IMG/VR virus record: IMGVR_UViG_3300028829_002605
Location: 1 to 22,184 of that record
DNA: 22,184 nt
Strand: one strand, 5' to 3'
DNA from: a virus
In this document: in pieces, positions 7,012 through 18,819 of the stretch
Layout of the letters: each line of letters opens with the position of its first letter
How positions within the stretch are numbered: position 1 is the first letter of the stretch
Program-made: the position numbers and the translations under genes
Notes under the pieces: model-generated
What the model was told of the DNA's origin: nothing
Databases searched by the model: none
What the model saw: only the letters and a program-made list of their open reading frames with translations

Positions 7012-8691
7012 GTGAGTATCGATAAACTTAAACAACTCAAGGACTTCCGTAACTTCTTATATGTAGTTTGGAAACACTTGAACCTACCTGATCCTACTGG
7101 ATTACAATATGACATTGCAGACTTCATGCAACACGGTCCTAAACGATCTGTTATCATGGCGTTCCGTGGAGTAGGTAAGTCTTGGATATGTTCTGCCTAT
7201 GCTGTACATCAACTCCTACTAGACCCCACTAAGAACATCCTGGTTGTATCTGCTTCTAAGAACCGTGCTGATGACTTCTCCACCTTTACCTTGAAAATCA
7301 TACACGACATTCCTGTTCTTCAAGGACTAATCCCTAAAAAGGATCAAAGGTTCTCTAAGATAGCCTTCGATGTCGGTCCTGCTCCAGCTGCTCACGCACC
7401 TTCCGTTAAGTCCCTTGGTATATCATCCCAGTTAACAGGTAGCCGTGCAGACATTATCATTGCTGATGACATCGAAGTACCTAATAACTCTGCTACTCAA
7501 GGAATGCGTGATAAGCTAGATGAACAAGTAAAAGAGTTTGAAGCTATTCTAAAGCCCTTAGACACCTCTAGGATTCTCTTTCTAGGGACACCCCAATGCG
7601 AGGACTCTATTTATAACAAACTGCGTGAGAGGGGCTATGACGCTCGTATATGGACCTCTGAGTATCCAAGTGAAGACTTAGTACTTAAGAACTACGATAA
7701 CGATATTGCTCCGTACTTAACTGAAAAGATAACAGATGAGACAGTAGGACGATCTACAGAACCCTCTAGGTTTACTGATCTAGACCTTGAAGAAAGAAAG
7801 CTGTCGTACGGTAGGACTGGGTATGCTTTACAGTTCATGCTTAACCCTCGTTTGTCGGATGCTGATCGGTATCCTTTAAAGGTTAACGATTTAATTATAA
7901 CAGATGTGGATGTAGACCTAGCTCCTGAAAAGATTATGTGGTCCTCTGATCCATCCTTTGAAAATAAAGATATTCCTAACGTAGGTCTAGGTGGGGATAG
8001 ATTTCATAAGCCCTTTAAGATATTAGGTGATATGATTGAGTACACAGGGTCTGTGTTGTCTATTGACCCTAGTGGTAGAGGAAAGGATGAAACAGGATAT
8101 GCTGTTGTTAAGATGCTTAACGGTCAACTCTTTGTTCCAGAAGCTGGTGGGTTAAAAGGTGGATATGATGAACAAACTCTTAAACAACTAGTCTACATTG
8201 CCAAGACTAATAAGGTTAACAAAATTATTATAGAGTCTAACTTTGGAGATGGTATGTTCATGGAACTACTTAAACCTTTGTTTATGACTACCTATCCTTG
8301 TTCCATTGAAGAAGTAAGACATAACAAACAAAAGGAACTTAGAATCATTGATGTCCTTGAACCTGTCCTTAATCAACATAAACTTATTATTGATCCTTCT
8401 GTTGTTCAACAAGACTATAAGAGTGCTCAGTCCTATCCTATTGAACATCAAGCTAAGTATATGCTTATCTATCAACTATCAAGGATAACAAAGGATAAAG
8501 GTAGCCTTATTAACGATGATAGATTAGATGCTCTCTCTATTGCTGTTAACTATTGGGTAGAACAAATGAATCAAGATGTTAACAATAACATTAACTATCG
8601 TAAACAGGAACTCCTGGACAAAGAACTAACGTCCTTTGTAGATACATTTAACAAAGCTAAAGGCTCTTATAACAGTAACCTTTGGATGTGA
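7012..8691 (+). CDS. Terminase large subunit (T7 gp19-like)
   Basis: A 559-residue DNA-packaging motor, near the 586 residues of T7 gp19. The ATPase domain has a Walker A motif FRGVGKSW (residues 51-58), a motif LVVSASKNRADDF (77-89) and a Walker B IIIADDIE (148-155). The C-terminal nuclease domain shows the first acidic motif in LSIDPSGRGKDETGYAV at about residue 350 and the late DDRLDALSIAVNYW motif near residue 510. It drives DNA into the prohead and cuts concatemers. It begins with GTG at 7012 (GTGAGT); no strong Shine-Dalgarno is visible nearby. It is the last gene of the late region, and a hairpin lies about 50 nt after its stop. Confidence 0.95.
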   Translation: MSIDKLKQLKDFRNFLYVVWKHLNLPDPTGLQYDIADFMQHGPKRSVIMAFRGVGKSWICSAYAVHQLLLDPTKNILVVSASKNRADDFSTFTLKIIHDIPVLQGLIPKKDQRFSKIAFDVGPAPAAHAPSVKSLGISSQLTGSRADIIIADDIEVPNNSATQGMRDKLDEQVKEFEAILKPLDTSRILFLGTPQCEDSIYNKLRERGYDARIWTSEYPSEDLVLKNYDNDIAPYLTEKITDETVGRSTEPSRFTDLDLEERKLSYGRTGYALQFMLNPRLSDADRYPLKVNDLIITDVDVDLAPEKIMWSSDPSFENKDIPNVGLGGDRFHKPFKILGDMIEYTGSVLSIDPSGRGKDETGYAVVKMLNGQLFVPEAGGLKGGYDEQTLKQLVYIAKTNKVNKIIIESNFGDGMFMELLKPLFMTTYPCSIEEVRHNKQKELRIIDVLEPVLNQHKLIIDPSVVQQDYKSAQSYPIEHQAKYMLIYQLSRITKDKGSLINDDRLDALSIAVNYWVEQMNQDVNNNINYRKQELLDKELTSFVDTFNKAKGSYNSNLWM

Positions 8692-9064: not shown

Positions 9065-9271
9065 ATGGACATAGATACTCAGACAGACTTGTTAACCAAC
9101 GACTTATGTAATTTAATAAATCGTTATAAAGGGGAGTTCGATTTGAATGACCAAACAATCTTAGGTGTACTGGAGTTTGTTAAATACGATATATTAGCTA
9201 CCAGTGTCATCCTTTTAGAACTAGATGAAGAAGATGAAGAAGAAGATGATGACGATGAAGAGATAATGTGA
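9065..9271 (+). CDS. Small acidic early protein with poly-Asp/Glu tail
   Basis: A 68-residue protein with a helical body (DLCNLINRYKGEFDLNDQTI, then LGVLEFVKYDILATSVILLE) and a final 15-residue tail of almost only Asp and Glu. I do not recognise a named family. Strongly acidic small early phage proteins include DNA mimics that block restriction enzymes or nucleoid proteins, so that role is possible but unproven. It is alone in the junction region with one coupled small gene (9268) downstream. No Shine-Dalgarno is seen; the ATG follows an A/T-rich leader. The tail composition is unlike its neighbours. Confidence 0.65.
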   Translation: MDIDTQTDLLTNDLCNLINRYKGEFDLNDQTILGVLEFVKYDILATSVILLELDEEDEEEDDDDEEIM

Positions 9272-9390
9272 GACACGTACAAACAGAAATCTATTGGATA
9301 GTAGCTATGATCATGTTCTTTTTAGAACGAGATGTACTAGTAGATTGCTTCTTTATGATGCTAGAAATAATCATCAGACTTTGTTTTTAA
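9268..9390 (+). CDS. Very small hydrophobic protein coupled to the acidic gene
   Basis: A 40-residue hydrophobic peptide starting with GTG at 9268, whose TGA part is the stop of the acidic gene (4-nt overlap). Residues 8-19 (IYWIVAMIMFFL) and 22-40 form two short hydrophobic stretches separated by ERD, so it may be a membrane peptide. No family recognised. Support is the stop-start coupling, the GTGAG start pattern shared with other genes here and the coherent hydrophobic composition; a chance ORF is not excluded. Confidence 0.45.
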   Translation: MRHVQTEIYWIVAMIMFFLERDVLVDCFFMMLEIIIRLCF

Positions 9391-9513
9391 ACAAAAGTAT
9401 ATTGGATTTTTGGTAGAAAAATTTGAGGGGCTTACGCTATATACGCGAACACATCAACTCCCCGAGCTACCCCTATAAAATTACTGTGGGGGTGGGTATA
9501 TTGTAGGACATAA

Positions 9514-9540
9514 TTGACAATATATTATTTTTGTTATGAT
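9514..9540 (+). promoter_or_regulatory. Possible host sigma70-type early promoter
   Basis: TTGACA (9514-9519, a perfect -35 box) and TATGAT (9535-9540, a good -10 box) face the early genes. The spacer is 15 nt, shorter than the preferred 17. T7-like phages start early transcription with the host polymerase near the genome end, and this is the best candidate seen in the region. Confidence 0.35.
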
Positions 9541-9603
9541 TTTACTCAAATTAATTATGTAAAGACTAGAAATCATTGGACATAATGTATATTGGGAGCA
9601 TAT

Positions 9604-9680
9604 TACACGAGTAAAGCAAAGTACTACACGAGTAAAGCAAAACCTATTCAATTTGTTAGAGTACTACACGAGTAAAGCAA
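9604..9680 (+). repeat. Three direct repeats TACACGAGTAAAGCAA
   Basis: Exact 16-bp copies lie at 9604-9619, 9625-9640 and 9665-9680; the second and third share five more bases upstream (AGTAC). Start-to-start distances are 21 and 40 bp, close to two and four helical turns, so proteins bound to them would sit on the same DNA face. Iteron-like origin repeats, regulator sites or packaging repeats are all possible. Confidence 0.75.
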
Positions 9681-9746
9681 GTTGATCACTTGATCTTATT
9701 GATAATCTGTTATCATTTGTAAATTTGTATTTTTTACTTTGTTTAT

Positions 9747-9833
9747 CTTTGACTAATCAAAGTCTATTACAATCATTAATCAAAGTCTTTATTCACTACT
9801 GATAAAACTATCTACTTTGATTAGTCAAAGTCT
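9747..9833. repeat. Near-palindromic operator-like repeats with TCAAAGTCT core
   Basis: CTTTGACTAATCAAAG (9747-9762) and CTTTGATTAGTCAAAG (9815-9830) are exact reverse complements of each other, and each is itself nearly palindromic (CTTTGA/TCAAAG arms). As direct repeats, TAATCAAAGTCT occurs at 9754 and 9777 and TAGTCAAAGTCT at 9822. The dyad symmetry suggests a dimeric DNA-binding protein, or an origin element. Confidence 0.65.
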
Positions 9834-9999
9834 TTTAATCTCATTTTATCAATAAAACTATAAAACTTTTTTTATTTTTTTTTCTATTAAGTAAAATCAA
9901 TGACTTACAACAAACTTAAAAATAAAGTCTTTACAATTTTTGATAATTTTGATTTAAAGCAAATCATATTTATTTTAACCAATAACCAAATATAAAAAT

Positions 10000-10239
10000 A
10001 TGAATAAAGACAATCTAATCAAATACTTCAATACTGTTAAGAAAAGCATGATCGCCGCTGAAGAGCTTAAAAATTTCAAAGGAGGGGATAATGCTAGGTT
10101 CACAGTATTACAGAGGAACGCTACAAGATACCACAATGATTGTGATAGAATAAGAGCTGAATTCTCAAATGCTGATATGGAAGTTTATATGAGCGTTAAA
10201 CACGCTTGGGATACTTACGCTGACATCTTTACAAAATAA
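10000..10239 (+). CDS. Hypothetical early protein (79 aa)
   Basis: A 79-residue protein, mainly helical by composition, with nearly balanced Lys and Asp/Glu content. No motif or family recognised. It is the first gene after the long control region. The ATG at 10000 follows an A-rich leader beginning TTTAACCAATAA (9974-9985) that recurs before other early genes. The next gene follows after 23 nt. Early position suggests a host-takeover or regulatory role, but nothing in the sequence shows which. Confidence 0.65.
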   Translation: MNKDNLIKYFNTVKKSMIAAEELKNFKGGDNARFTVLQRNATRYHNDCDRIRAEFSNADMEVYMSVKHAWDTYADIFTK

Positions 10240-12882: not shown

Positions 12883-13084
12883 TGATGAAGATTTCGATGA
12901 AGTATATTATACTACGAGAGCGTTTGAAATGGAGGTAAAGAAAAAGTTTGAATTGTTTTGGATGAATAACCAATTAGGTTATGATGAGTTCGGACGATTG
13001 ATACGAACAGAAATACCAAGAAGGAAGCCGAAGGAGTGGAGAGAGTTTGAAATTAAAAAAAGAAAGATTAAAAGTGAGCAATAA
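12875..13084 (+). CDS. Hypothetical protein directly before RNA polymerase (69 aa)
   Basis: A 69-residue protein with an acidic start (MSSDEDFDEVYY), a helix, then a basic C-terminus (PRRKPKEWREFEIKKRKIKS). No family recognised. It has a strong ribosome site (GAGGAGGAG about 5 nt before ATG). Its end overlaps the start of the RNA polymerase gene by up to 38 nt (TTG at 13047) or 11 nt (GTG at 13074), so translation of the polymerase is probably linked to it. Confidence 0.65.
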   Translation: MSSDEDFDEVYYTTRAFEMEVKKKFELFWMNNQLGYDEFGRLIRTEIPRRKPKEWREFEIKKRKIKSEQ

Positions 13085-15470
13085 AAGAGTAAGTGGACAC
13101 CCAAAAGAAGATATGTGGGAACAGTCGATGGTAGAGTGGGGAAAGCACAGGTACAGGAAGATGAAGGAGGTATATAAAGATAACAATTACCTGTCCGAAC
13201 AACCAAGCTATAAGAGACTAGGACGAGCGATACATGAGGACGTAGAGAATGCAATTGCTAGGTACTTTGAGGACTGTTCAAAGCCAGACGCACCTGTTCC
13301 TTTGTGGCTTCCTTTTGTTTGGGATTTAGAACCCAGTGTGATTGCATATCTTGGTATTAAGAAGCTATTTGATTTGTTAATTGACGAACCAAACATTACT
13401 GCCGCGAGTTTTGAAATGGCAAAGGCAATAGAAGATGAAGTACGTGTCCGTTACTTTAAAAAGCACATGAACAAAAGCGATTGGATGCTACTCGAAAGGG
13501 ATAGAAAAGATGCGAAGAGTAGGTATCGTTTTATGTCCCACTTCTGGACAAAGGAAAGGAAGTACCACAAACAAGGAAGGTATAAACGCTTTGATCTTTT
13601 TAAACAACACCATAAAGCAGTGATTGGATGTTGGTTATTAGAAGTGATACGCTTACAAACCAATTTGTTTTCTGTCCGTGATCGATTCTGCCAAGGGAGA
13701 AAGACAAAGAAGATACTAGTTCCAAACCCTAAAATGTACGAGTGGATCAAGAAGTATGATGAACACTGTGAAGTCTTGTCTCCCTTTTGGTTAGCTACTC
13801 TTGAGAAACCTATTGAATGGAATGACAACTGGGGTGGTGGGTACAGTTCGATTGAACTTCCACAACTTCCCATCATGAAACGAAGTGATATGTCGAGGGA
13901 TTTATCCAAGGCTTTTGAACCTTTAAACAACTTGCAAAATGTACCGTATCGATTGAATAAAAAGTTATACGAAGTCATGCAATGGGCGTGGGAAAATGAC
14001 TTGTCCATCGGAGCTATGCAAAAGAGTCAGTTACTTGAACCACTTGACCCAGTAGAAGGACTAGTACAGAAAGACCCTGAAGCTTTTATCGAGTGGAAGA
14101 AGAAGGCTAAGTATATCTATGAGTTTAACCAACGGACTAACGGACAAAGGATGAGGTGTTTAAAAATCCTACACGTCTGTAAGTTATATGCTGACAAGGA
14201 AAAGCTTTTCTTTCCAGTTCAAATGGATTACAGAGGACGAGTGTATTATGTACCTAGCTATGTTAACCCACAAAGTTGTGACCTTGGAAGGAGTTGCTTA
14301 GAGTTTTACAATAGCGTACCAATTACTAACGAGGAGGAGAGTAGGTGGTTGTTAATACACGGAGCAAATGTATGGGGTACAAAGGGGACTTATGATGAAC
14401 GCATTGCTTGGATAAAAGACCATGAAAATGAGATAAAAGAATGTGCGTCTGATCCTTTTAACAATGACTATTGGCAAGAAGCTTCTGATCCTTGGGCTTT
14501 CCTGGCGTTTTGTTTTGAATACCAAGCATTTAAGGAGGAAGGATATGGATTTGAAACGAGGTTACCTTGTCACATGGACGCTACTTGTAATGGTGTACAG
14601 ATTCTATCTTTACTTTTAAAAGATGAGGAGATTGGAGAGTGGACAAACTTAGTACCACAAGATAAACCAAAAGATTTATACCAAGAGATATGTGACCGTG
14701 TAAATACTAGACTACACGCTAATAAGCACAGACACTCTCTTGCTGGTGACTGGTTAAAGTGGGGGATTACAAGGAAGTATGTAAAGAAGATAGTAATGTG
14801 TAAACCTTTTGGAATGAATAGCTACTCTAGTGTTGATGAAGTAGAAGATGTATTCAAAAGGGAGATCCGTAACGGACGAGTTAATCCATTTAGTAACACT
14901 GAATATGTGGAAGCTATGCTCTACCTTGCTACCTTGATTAATGACGTAGCAAATTGGATGCTTGGTAAACACATTACCTTCATGAAAAAGTTGAAGAATC
15001 AAATACGAAAGTGTGATAAAAAATTTACGTGGACTTCACCCTTTGGATTACCTATTGAACAGGAGCTTGTTAAGAAGGATAACCTTTACGTTAAATCTGT
15101 CCTTAACATGCAAAGCATTCAAGTAAAGTACCGAAGAGATAACGATTTAATTTGTCCTTCTCAGATGGCTAAAGCTATTGTACCCAACGTGATACACAGT
15201 ATCGATGCTAGTGTGGTACATTTTTTAGCTTGCAAATTCAAAGGTGATGTCTCATCTATACATGACAGCTTTGCAACTCAAAGCCCTAACGCACCGAAGA
15301 TGCACCAACAATTGAGAGAGATATACCAAGAGATTTTTAGTAACGACATCGGGAATAAGTTCAACAACGAAGTCGCTACACAAACTGGAACGAACGAACT
15401 GGAAGACAGCACAGAACTAGGCACACTTGACGTGTCTGCATTAAACGACTGCCAGTACCTGTTCTCATAA
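13047..15470 (+). CDS. Phage single-subunit DNA-dependent RNA polymerase
   Basis: A T7-type RNA polymerase of 807 residues (T7: 883), expected to transcribe middle and late genes from phage promoters. Catalytic motifs: MDYRGRVYY with Asp394 (T7 Asp537), RKYVKKIVMCKPFG with Lys580 (T7 Lys631), and IHDSFATQ with Asp740 (T7 Asp812); PNVIHSIDAS precedes the last. Ungapped comparison of the Lys motif puts Phe588 where T7 has Tyr639, the residue that discriminates NTP from dNTP. The stretch matching the T7 promoter-recognition loop region appears a few residues shorter. The start is uncertain: TTG at 13047 has a GGAG-rich upstream sequence, while GTG at 13074 (GTGAGC) fits the GTGAG start pattern and would give 798 residues. 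It closes the early region and leads into the replication genes. Confidence 0.96.
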   Translation: MKLKKERLKVSNKRVSGHPKEDMWEQSMVEWGKHRYRKMKEVYKDNNYLSEQPSYKRLGRAIHEDVENAIARYFEDCSKPDAPVPLWLPFVWDLEPSVIAYLGIKKLFDLLIDEPNITAASFEMAKAIEDEVRVRYFKKHMNKSDWMLLERDRKDAKSRYRFMSHFWTKERKYHKQGRYKRFDLFKQHHKAVIGCWLLEVIRLQTNLFSVRDRFCQGRKTKKILVPNPKMYEWIKKYDEHCEVLSPFWLATLEKPIEWNDNWGGGYSSIELPQLPIMKRSDMSRDLSKAFEPLNNLQNVPYRLNKKLYEVMQWAWENDLSIGAMQKSQLLEPLDPVEGLVQKDPEAFIEWKKKAKYIYEFNQRTNGQRMRCLKILHVCKLYADKEKLFFPVQMDYRGRVYYVPSYVNPQSCDLGRSCLEFYNSVPITNEEESRWLLIHGANVWGTKGTYDERIAWIKDHENEIKECASDPFNNDYWQEASDPWAFLAFCFEYQAFKEEGYGFETRLPCHMDATCNGVQILSLLLKDEEIGEWTNLVPQDKPKDLYQEICDRVNTRLHANKHRHSLAGDWLKWGITRKYVKKIVMCKPFGMNSYSSVDEVEDVFKREIRNGRVNPFSNTEYVEAMLYLATLINDVANWMLGKHITFMKKLKNQIRKCDKKFTWTSPFGLPIEQELVKKDNLYVKSVLNMQSIQVKYRRDNDLICPSQMAKAIVPNVIHSIDASVVHFLACKFKGDVSSIHDSFATQSPNAPKMHQQLREIYQEIFSNDIGNKFNNEVATQTGTNELEDSTELGTLDVSALNDCQYLFS

Positions 15471-18061: not shown

Positions 18062-18418
18062 ATGAAAACCAAATTAACAGAAGAGTTCTCGTTTGAGGCT
18101 GCTCATCGTATATTAAATAAAAGAAAAGAATATGGAGAACTGCATGGACATACGCATAAAGTATATGTAACTGTAAGCGGAGAACCTGACCCCGAAGTTG
18201 GGTGGTTAATCGATCAGCAAGAGTTTCGCGGTGTTGTCGGCAGAGTAGTGAAACGATTAGATCATCGATACTTAAATGAAATAATGGAACAGACTACAGC
18301 AGAAAGTATAGCCCTGTATTTATTCAAAGAGGTAGAGAAGAACTTATCATTCAATGCTTTGACTTTAGATTCAGTCAGGGTCTGCAAGACTACAACTCAA
18401 GCGGAGGTATCTAAATGA
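18062..18418 (+). CDS. queD: QueD/PTPS family protein with altered active site
   Basis: A 118-residue member of the 6-pyruvoyl-tetrahydropterin synthase / 6-carboxy-tetrahydropterin synthase family (E. coli QueD: about 120). QueD makes CPH4, an intermediate to preQ0. The zinc ligands are present: His15 (FSFEAAHR), His28 and His30 (LHGHTH). The catalytic Asp67-His68 pair is present (LDHRYLNEI, like LDHHYLNDI in E. coli). But the QueD catalytic Cys27 position (KCGRLHGH in E. coli) holds Tyr24 (EYGELHGH), and the conserved C-terminal Glu110 (VKETCT) aligns with Lys109 (VCKTTT). So canonical activity is doubtful. It starts 4 nt after the helicase stop and overlaps the next gene by ATGA. The gene symbol denotes the family, not a proven activity. 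Confidence 0.85.
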   Translation: MKTKLTEEFSFEAAHRILNKRKEYGELHGHTHKVYVTVSGEPDPEVGWLIDQQEFRGVVGRVVKRLDHRYLNEIMEQTTAESIALYLFKEVEKNLSFNALTLDSVRVCKTTTQAEVSK

Positions 18419-18819
18419 AGACGAGATTAGTTTACTTAGCTGGAGCAATATATGAGATGGATGATACTTGTATCAGGTGGAGGAAAGCAGCTTCTGCTTT
18501 ATTAAGAAAAAAAGGAGTGCAGAGTTTAAAGCCTACTGACGCAGATTATCGAGGGAAAGAAACCATTGCTGGTATCCCAGAGCAAATAGTGGAGCGAGAT
18601 AAGCGAGACATAGTAGCTTGTGATACGATCCTAGCAAAGTGCGATCAACCATCATGGGGAACTGCAATGGAAATTATGTTTGCTTGGAGTTTACATAAAC
18701 AAATTATTGTAGTCACTAGTTCAATGTCACCTTGGATTAGATACCACGCAGATTATGTATTCACTACAGTTGAAGAAGCAATTAACGCAATGGAATATCC
18801 AACACTAGAAGAGAGATGA
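18415..18819 (+). CDS. Nucleoside 2-deoxyribosyltransferase-like protein
   Basis: A 134-residue protein with the NDT fold signature: a YLAGAIYE start (residues 7-14), an acidic RDKRDIVACDTILA strand (61-74), then a WGTAMEIMFAW motif in which Glu86 matches the catalytic glutamate of NDT, and the strand KQIIVVTSS. Family members exchange or remove the base of deoxynucleosides or deoxynucleotides through a covalent glutamate intermediate (NDT, DNPH1/Rcl). The close linkage to queD and a TGT-like gene suggests use on a guanine or 7-deazaguanine nucleotide; this is inference. Coupled by ATGA overlaps on both sides. A nucleotide-salvage role unrelated to modification is the main alternative. Confidence 0.8.
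   Translation: MKTRLVYLAGAIYEMDDTCIRWRKAASALLRKKGVQSLKPTDADYRGKETIAGIPEQIVERDKRDIVACDTILAKCDQPSWGTAMEIMFAWSLHKQIIVVTSSMSPWIRYHADYVFTTVEEAINAMEYPTLEER

What the first reader, a model, noticed from the sequence alone, without database searches (positions are those of the whole stretch)
9604..9680. Phased 16-bp direct repeats TACACGAGTAAAGCAA
Three exact copies at 9604, 9625 and 9665 with spacings of 21 and 40 bp, near whole helical turns, in a long non-coding region. The sequence stands out from the AT-rich surroundings. It may be iterons of an origin, sites for a phage regulator or part of the packaging signal.
Basis: seen in the sequence. Interest (0 to 1): 0.55.

Follow-up and report, generated by a model that had tools for sequence, protein, structure and literature searches.

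The report
Swappable control elements beside phage dif
The repeats are a real, short, one-directional DNA element that related marine phages swap in and out of one control region, right beside a copy of the chromosome-separation site (dif) of Verrucomicrobiota bacteria, which points to those bacteria as the likely host.

Summary
The three exact 16-mers are real and occur nowhere else in the 22,184-base record. In relatives (T7-like phages) the core lies 0.7-1.3 kb downstream of terL, always on the same strand: 59 hits in 44 of 115 regions, none on the other strand, one near-match in 810 kb outside. It is not needed for replication or packaging: 7 of 12 phages with terL at least 98.5% identical lack it and carry other short elements in the same slot. 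Its presence needs 19 changes on the terL tree (shuffled mean 22.1). So it is an exchangeable operator-like element. The protein that reads it is unknown, and no neighbouring gene family tracks it. Unrelated phages carry a fuller dyad of it, and another slot element, without dif. Next to the repeats (9575-9602) lies a XerC/XerD dif-like site. It matches the dif of Verrucomicrobiota class Opitutia, occurs in 44 of 45 terL-selected relatives, and none of 13 family records has a tyrosine integrase. This suggests an Opitutia host and use of host Xer recombinases. Helical phasing is not supported.

The parts
7012..8691 (+). terL, terminase large subunit; reference gene for locating the region in relatives
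   Evidence: tblastn to phage terminases
9065..9271 (+). last small acidic ORF before the control region; no family
9467..9495 (+). terminator-like hairpin (11 pairs), present in some form in relatives as CCCC...GGGG
   Evidence: 1 found, shuffles 0.1; fold -17.2 kcal/mol for 9455-9500; relatives
9575..9602 (-). dif-like site (XerC arm, 6-bp centre, XerD arm), 22 of 27 bases equal to the modal Opitutia dif
9604..9619 (+). 16-mer copy 1 (copy next to the reverse-type dif site)
9625..9640 (+). 16-mer copy 2 (same block as first copy of L004/L011)
9665..9680 (+). 16-mer copy 3 (same block as second copy of L004/L011)
9700..9715 (+). second slot element, dyad TGATAATCTGTTATCA
   Evidence: 18 + / 0 - in slots, 0 elsewhere in 810 kb
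9718..9746 (+). AT-rich block conserved between slot 1 and slot 2
   Evidence: alignment of 10 near-identical phages
9747..9830 (+). slot 2: copies of CTTTGAYTARTCAAAG as 17-bp inverted arms 9747-9763 / 9814-9830; replaced by other elements in relatives
10000..10239 (+). first early ORF
   Evidence: no Pfam family

Best explanation
The 16-mer is a binding site (operator-like element) for a dyad-reading DNA-binding protein. It sits in slot 1 of the control region between the late-gene terminator plus dif-like site and the early genes, where phages of this group exchange one short element for another. SHOWN: place, strand, exact conservation, confinement to the slot, exchange between near-identical phages, and a fuller palindromic form in unrelated phages. 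INFERRED: that a protein binds it, that this sets the early transcription of the incoming genome, and that the protein comes from the host or from a co-resident element rather than from a gene next to the site.
For: 59 of 59 region hits lie on one strand, in 44 of 115 regions; 1 near-match in about 810 kb outside. Whole-record search: only the slot copies in 3 of 13 records, none in the other 10. Near-identical phages swap it for CGCAAATC...TTTGCG, TTATTGCAAGT...TTGC or TTGAGAC-type elements between the same flanks; 19 changes on the terL tree. Other slot elements behave alike: 38 + / 0 -, 41 / 1, 18 / 0, with 0 elsewhere. Core TACACGWGTA is a near-dyad; unrelated phages have TGCTTTACAYRTGTAAAGCA, in several cases about 30-50 bp from the TTATTGCAAGT element or a variant of it. 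One slot element also stands between a divergent AraC-like gene and a TonB-receptor-like gene in one Opitutia-class chromosome (my reading of the ORFs, no family search).
Against: No binding protein was identified. No ORF family within 4.5 kb downstream (57 loci) or 3.5 kb upstream (79 loci) tracks the 16-mer. TACACGAGTAAAGC is absent from 384 of 384 Opitutia-class genomes searched (reversed control: 6 hits), so a host regulator with exact chromosomal copies is not supported. Sigma-70-like sites in 9270-10010 are no more than in shuffles. Strict one-strand orientation is not expected for a simple symmetric operator; the AAGCA tail makes the site asymmetric.
Confidence: 0.45

Rival explanations
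1. Accessory (arm-type) sites for Xer recombination at the adjacent dif-like site, bound by a protein that lets XerC/XerD act on the phage genome (integration at the host dif, circularisation or dimer resolution).
For: The first 16-mer starts 1 bp after the dif-like site in the window and 0-3 bp after it in many relatives (from the positions); dif-like site in 44 of 45 terL-selected loci; no tyrosine integrase in 13 of 13 family records while 3 of 3 distant relatives have one.
Against: 71 of 115 dif-bearing regions lack the 16-mer core; the dif-like site occurs in both orientations (92 forward, 23 reverse) while the 16-mer keeps one; unrelated phages carry the dyad or the TTATTGCAAGT element with no dif-like site within 800 bp (49 of 62 rows).
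Confidence: 0.2
2. Iterons of a replication origin.
For: Direct repeats in an AT-rich non-coding region next to an AT-rich conserved block.
Against: One copy only in 30 of 44 regions and none in 71 of 115; absent in near-identical phages with the same terL; no gene family near the slot tracks it.
Confidence: 0.08
3. Packaging or end-cleavage signal for the terminase.
For: Lies just after terL where T7-like genomes have their ends (recalled); contig ends lie near the dif-like site more than elsewhere, weakly.
Against: Phages with identical or nearly identical TerL differ in having it. None of the nine records whose ends were examined showed a terminal repeat there (one 127-base end overlap, of G399, has none of the landmark motifs).
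Confidence: 0.05
4. An RNA element (hairpin or protein-binding RNA) in a leader transcript.
For: Strict strand bias of this and most other slot elements; several can form short hairpins.
Against: No Rfam match at or above a gathering score; the elements read as DNA dyads; no transcript known.
Confidence: 0.12

Closest known systems
[quoted passage not shown] CTXphi, VGJphi, TLCphi (review PMC5357621, passages seen)
   Same: Phage DNA with a dif-like site, 11+6+11 bp, close to the host dif, and no tyrosine integrase of its own.
   Different: Those named in the passages are vibriophages, described there as filamentous, and genomic islands; here it is a T7-like phage group. No integrated copy was found in 384 Opitutia-class genomes (no positive control).
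Mycobacteriophage L5 stoperators (recalled, no call)
   Same: Short asymmetric sites with a fixed orientation to transcription.
   Different: Stoperators are many and spread over the genome; here 1-3 copies in one slot, and no repressor gene is known.
Roseobacter T7-like phages CRP-125 and CRP-361 and fosmid phage MedDCM-OCT-S45-C18
   Same: TerL about 59-64% identical and a similar gene order.
   Different: They encode a tyrosine integrase, two with an annotated MarR-like gene. None of the strings for the 16-mer, the dif arm or the anchor was found in the stretches examined (one single TTGAGAC in the MedDCM stretch).

Membership tests
IMEX (Xer-exploiting element) | dif-like attP with XerC and XerD arms like the host dif | tested here: met
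Window site 22 of 27 identical, score 22.5 against a shuffled maximum of 7.3.
IMEX (Xer-exploiting element) | no integrase of its own | tested here: met
   PF00589: 0 of 13 family records; 3 of 3 integrase-bearing relatives ring as control. Serine integrases not tested.
IMEX (Xer-exploiting element) | integrates at host dif through host XerC/XerD | tested here: inconclusive
   TerL in 0 of 384 Opitutia-class genomes at E<=1e-20, no positive control; activity not testable.
Replication-origin iterons | several copies kept in all members, with a linked initiator gene | tested here: not met
   Single copy in 30 of 44 and absent in 71 of 115 regions; no linked gene family near the slot.
T7-like packaging / terminal repeat signal | present in every phage with that terminase | tested here: not met
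   Absent in 7 of 12 phages with terL at least 98.5% identical.
Promoters of the phage's own T7-like RNA polymerase | same motif before many genes across the genome | tested here: not met
   No copy with up to 1 mismatch outside the slot in 13 records.
Transcription operator / activator site | dyad bound by an identified regulator, effect on a promoter | not testable with these tools
   Dyad seen; no protein, no promoter proven.

The most novel reading that the evidence does not exclude
T7-like podophages of marine Opitutia have dropped their integrase and use the host XerC/XerD system through a dif copy at the edge of the early control region. Beside it they keep plug-in slots in which they exchange sensor sites (the 16-mer is one word of a vocabulary shared with unrelated phages), so that the decision or strength of early expression is rewired by swapping 16-32 bp elements.
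Probability: 0.3. Interest if true: 0.8.

Novelty: new variant of a known kind. Interest (0 to 1): 0.6.

Why it matters
It gives a concrete host (class Opitutia) for a marine T7-like phage group whose TerL is at most 64% identical to any phage record searched. It suggests an Xer-dependent lifestyle that my searches did not find described for T7-like phages. It also exposes a natural library of exchangeable control elements whose readers could be fished out one by one.

Tried and rejected
Helical phasing: rejected from spacings in relatives. Iterons and packaging: rejected by absence in near-identical phages. A cognate gene near the slot: association tests (800 tests over all elements; 31) gave only hits that look lineage-linked (best: 10 of the 24 loci with the 16-mer). 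Host operator with exact copies: 0 of 384 genomes; the fuller dyad with any 4-base centre 2 of 188 against 3 of 188 for the control; CGCAAATCAACAGAT 1 of 141, in what looks like coding DNA; TTGCAAGTnnnTTGCATTA 1 of 188. Rfam: one sub-threshold microRNA hit, taken as chance. Terminal repeats by contig ends: suggestive clustering only, with two contigs (L099, G397) ending inside the dif-like site; not claimed. Search of isolate phages with the repeat pair: one 17-base chance hit in a Shigella phage. The notes are superseded where they differ: says 7 control hits, a recount of that output gives 6.

Rows dropped: 147 regions were reduced to 115 by identical first 250 bases, and regions were selected by the anchor GCTATATAC[AG] and the XerD-arm string, so invariance of those letters is by construction. 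The unselected check is: of 80 terL-found loci, 45 had 1400 bp or more downstream; 44 of 45 score at least 15, the last scores 14.7; 9 of the 45 hold the strict 16-mer core. Of 94 anchor loci with at least 450 bp, 18 lack the dif string; some are large unrelated contigs, I did not examine all. Six of the 32 stretches are hits away from any terL or dif-like site, mostly in what reads as coding DNA (L009, L010, L012, L018, L021, L028).

Full report
What the window is. The window is a 22,184-base virus record, a fragment of a T7-like phage: tail genes, terL (7012-8691), a 0.7-kb non-coding region, small early genes, RNA polymerase (13047-15470), SSB, endonuclease I, primase-helicase and DNA polymerase (the last two named from recall of the gene order). 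Its TerL is at most 64% identical to any phage record searched and its RNA polymerase is about 31% or less in the ten rows listed.

The observation. Three exact 16-mers stand at 9604, 9625 and 9665, beyond chance. A scan of 2.9 million viral contigs gave 32 stretches with the exact 16-mer. Reading them, 26 have the same setting and 6 look like chance hits. In loci that also hold terL, with TerL identity from 64 to 100%, the repeat lies about 0.7 to 1.3 kb after terL.

Conservation and confinement. In 115 deduplicated regions the core ACACGWGTAAAG occurs 59 times on the + strand inside the region and never on the - strand. Outside it occurs once in 809,872 bases, and that one departs from the 16-mer right after the core. 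It is present in 44 of 115 regions: one copy in 30, two in 13, three only in the window. The letters TACACGAGTAAAGC are nearly invariant while the flanks are not. In whole records with up to one mismatch, 3 of 13 have it, only in the slot.

Exchange. On a TerL tree of 78 loci presence needs 19 changes (11 forced by well-supported branches); shuffled labels give a mean of 22.1, with 31 of 500 as low. So the element is scattered almost at random over the tree. Among 12 phages with TerL at least 98.5% identical, 5 have it and 7 do not. The alignment of 10 of them shows largely conserved flanks in 9 and a replacement between ...GACTTAGGTAATA and TGTAAATTTGTATTTTTTACTTTGTTTAT; the window itself differs also around its dif-like site, which has the reverse orientation. 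The replacements are other short elements. Most are likewise confined to the slot and to one strand: CGCAAATC type 38 to 0, TTATTGCAAGT 41 to 1, TATTGATAAT dyad 18 to 0, each with none elsewhere in 810 kb; the TTGAGAC pair is 15 to 3, with 8 elsewhere on the other strand. The 16-mer and the CGCAAATC element avoid each other (6 both, 30 and 30 alone, 31 neither; p = 0.002), although relatedness was not corrected for. The window's three copies look like a recombinant: one copy of the reverse-dif type (compare L030) joined to the two-copy block of L004 (inference).

The dif-like site. Ending one base before copy 1 lies ATTGGACATAATGTATATTGGGAGCATA (9575-9602). In the family the consensus, read in the other direction, is TTCGYACAA-TATNNA-TTATGTCTAAT, 92 forward and 23 reverse. 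It occurs exactly once in 15 of 15 of these genomes. In the complete genome CP011265.1 it lies at 1.79 of 4.0 Mb, with dnaA at position 358. I therefore read it as the chromosomal dif of Opitutia, and the phage site as a copy of it. The window site scores 22.5 against a maximum of 7.3 in 120 shuffled 1600-bp stretches. In loci picked by TerL alone, 44 of 45 score 15 or more in the 1.8 kb after terL; the best score upstream in the same loci is 1.9. None of 13 family records has a tyrosine integrase, while three relatives do. This is what an Xer-exploiting phage should look like (IMEX; review PMC5357621, passages seen). But TerL was found in 0 of 384 Opitutia-class genomes (no positive control), so integration is not shown. 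The only isolated phage of this bacterial group that I saw in print is P8625 with a long tail (PMC4642752: start of the abstract and two passages).

What reads the 16-mer. The core TACACGWGTA is a near-dyad with an AAGCA tail on one side. Other phages, without any dif-like site nearby, carry the symmetric form TGCTTTACAYRTGTAAAGCA, several of them close to a TTATTGCAAGTnnnTTGCAT-like element. L413 also shares an early ORF with family member L047 (read by eye). So the elements are a vocabulary shared between phage groups, and they are not tied to dif. This favours binding sites for regulators over recombination accessories. No linked gene was found, and exact copies are missing from Opitutia chromosomes (0 of 384).

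Verdict. Observation confirmed. Iterons and packaging are unlikely. The larger result is the dif copy with adjacent exchangeable slots. My literature searches did not show a T7-like phage with a dif-like site or an Autographiviridae-Opitutia link; the library holds only part of the literature.

Noticed in passing
L051, L110, L052, L111, L070, L008 (region before the first early gene): Sequences resembling sigma-54 promoters (TGGCA-N..-TGC, -24/-12 spacing, recalled consensus) replace the usual AT-rich early promoter region, with slot-2 elements such as GTATAAAAACTATAC or CTAGGTAA upstream like enhancer sites.
   Followed up: partly
window 9747-9830 and relatives: A second exchangeable slot (CTTTGATTAGTCAAAG, TGACGTCA, GTATAAAAACTATAC, CCAWATWTGG, AACGATCA, TGTCAC, TCTCAA types).
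   Followed up: partly
L452 position 1500 (one unnamed Opitutia-class genome, G056): The slot element TTGCAAGTAATTTGCATTA stands between a divergent AraC-like gene and a TonB-receptor-like gene (read by eye), as a metal-regulator box might.
   Followed up: partly
L413 near 4215 on the motif strand: A contig without a match to seven window proteins tested shares an early ORF with L047 and carries both the full dyad and TTATTGCAAGT between late and early genes; possibly another phage group of the same host.
   Followed up: partly
G397 (contig of L062) and L099: Two contigs end inside the dif-like site; may be chance or a trace of recombination there.
   Followed up: partly
window 18062-18418 and 18415-18819: 6-pyruvoyl-tetrahydropterin synthase and nucleoside 2-deoxyribosyltransferase families side by side: possible base-modification or queuosine-type genes.
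   Followed up: no
window gene starts 10000, 10263, 10522, 11596, 18062: These genes lack a clear Shine-Dalgarno-like sequence and have A-rich leaders.
   Followed up: no
loci with GTTGATNATCAACGACTTA around the dif-like site: A palindromic motif flanks dif in the forward type and recurs before early genes; unexplained.
   Followed up: no
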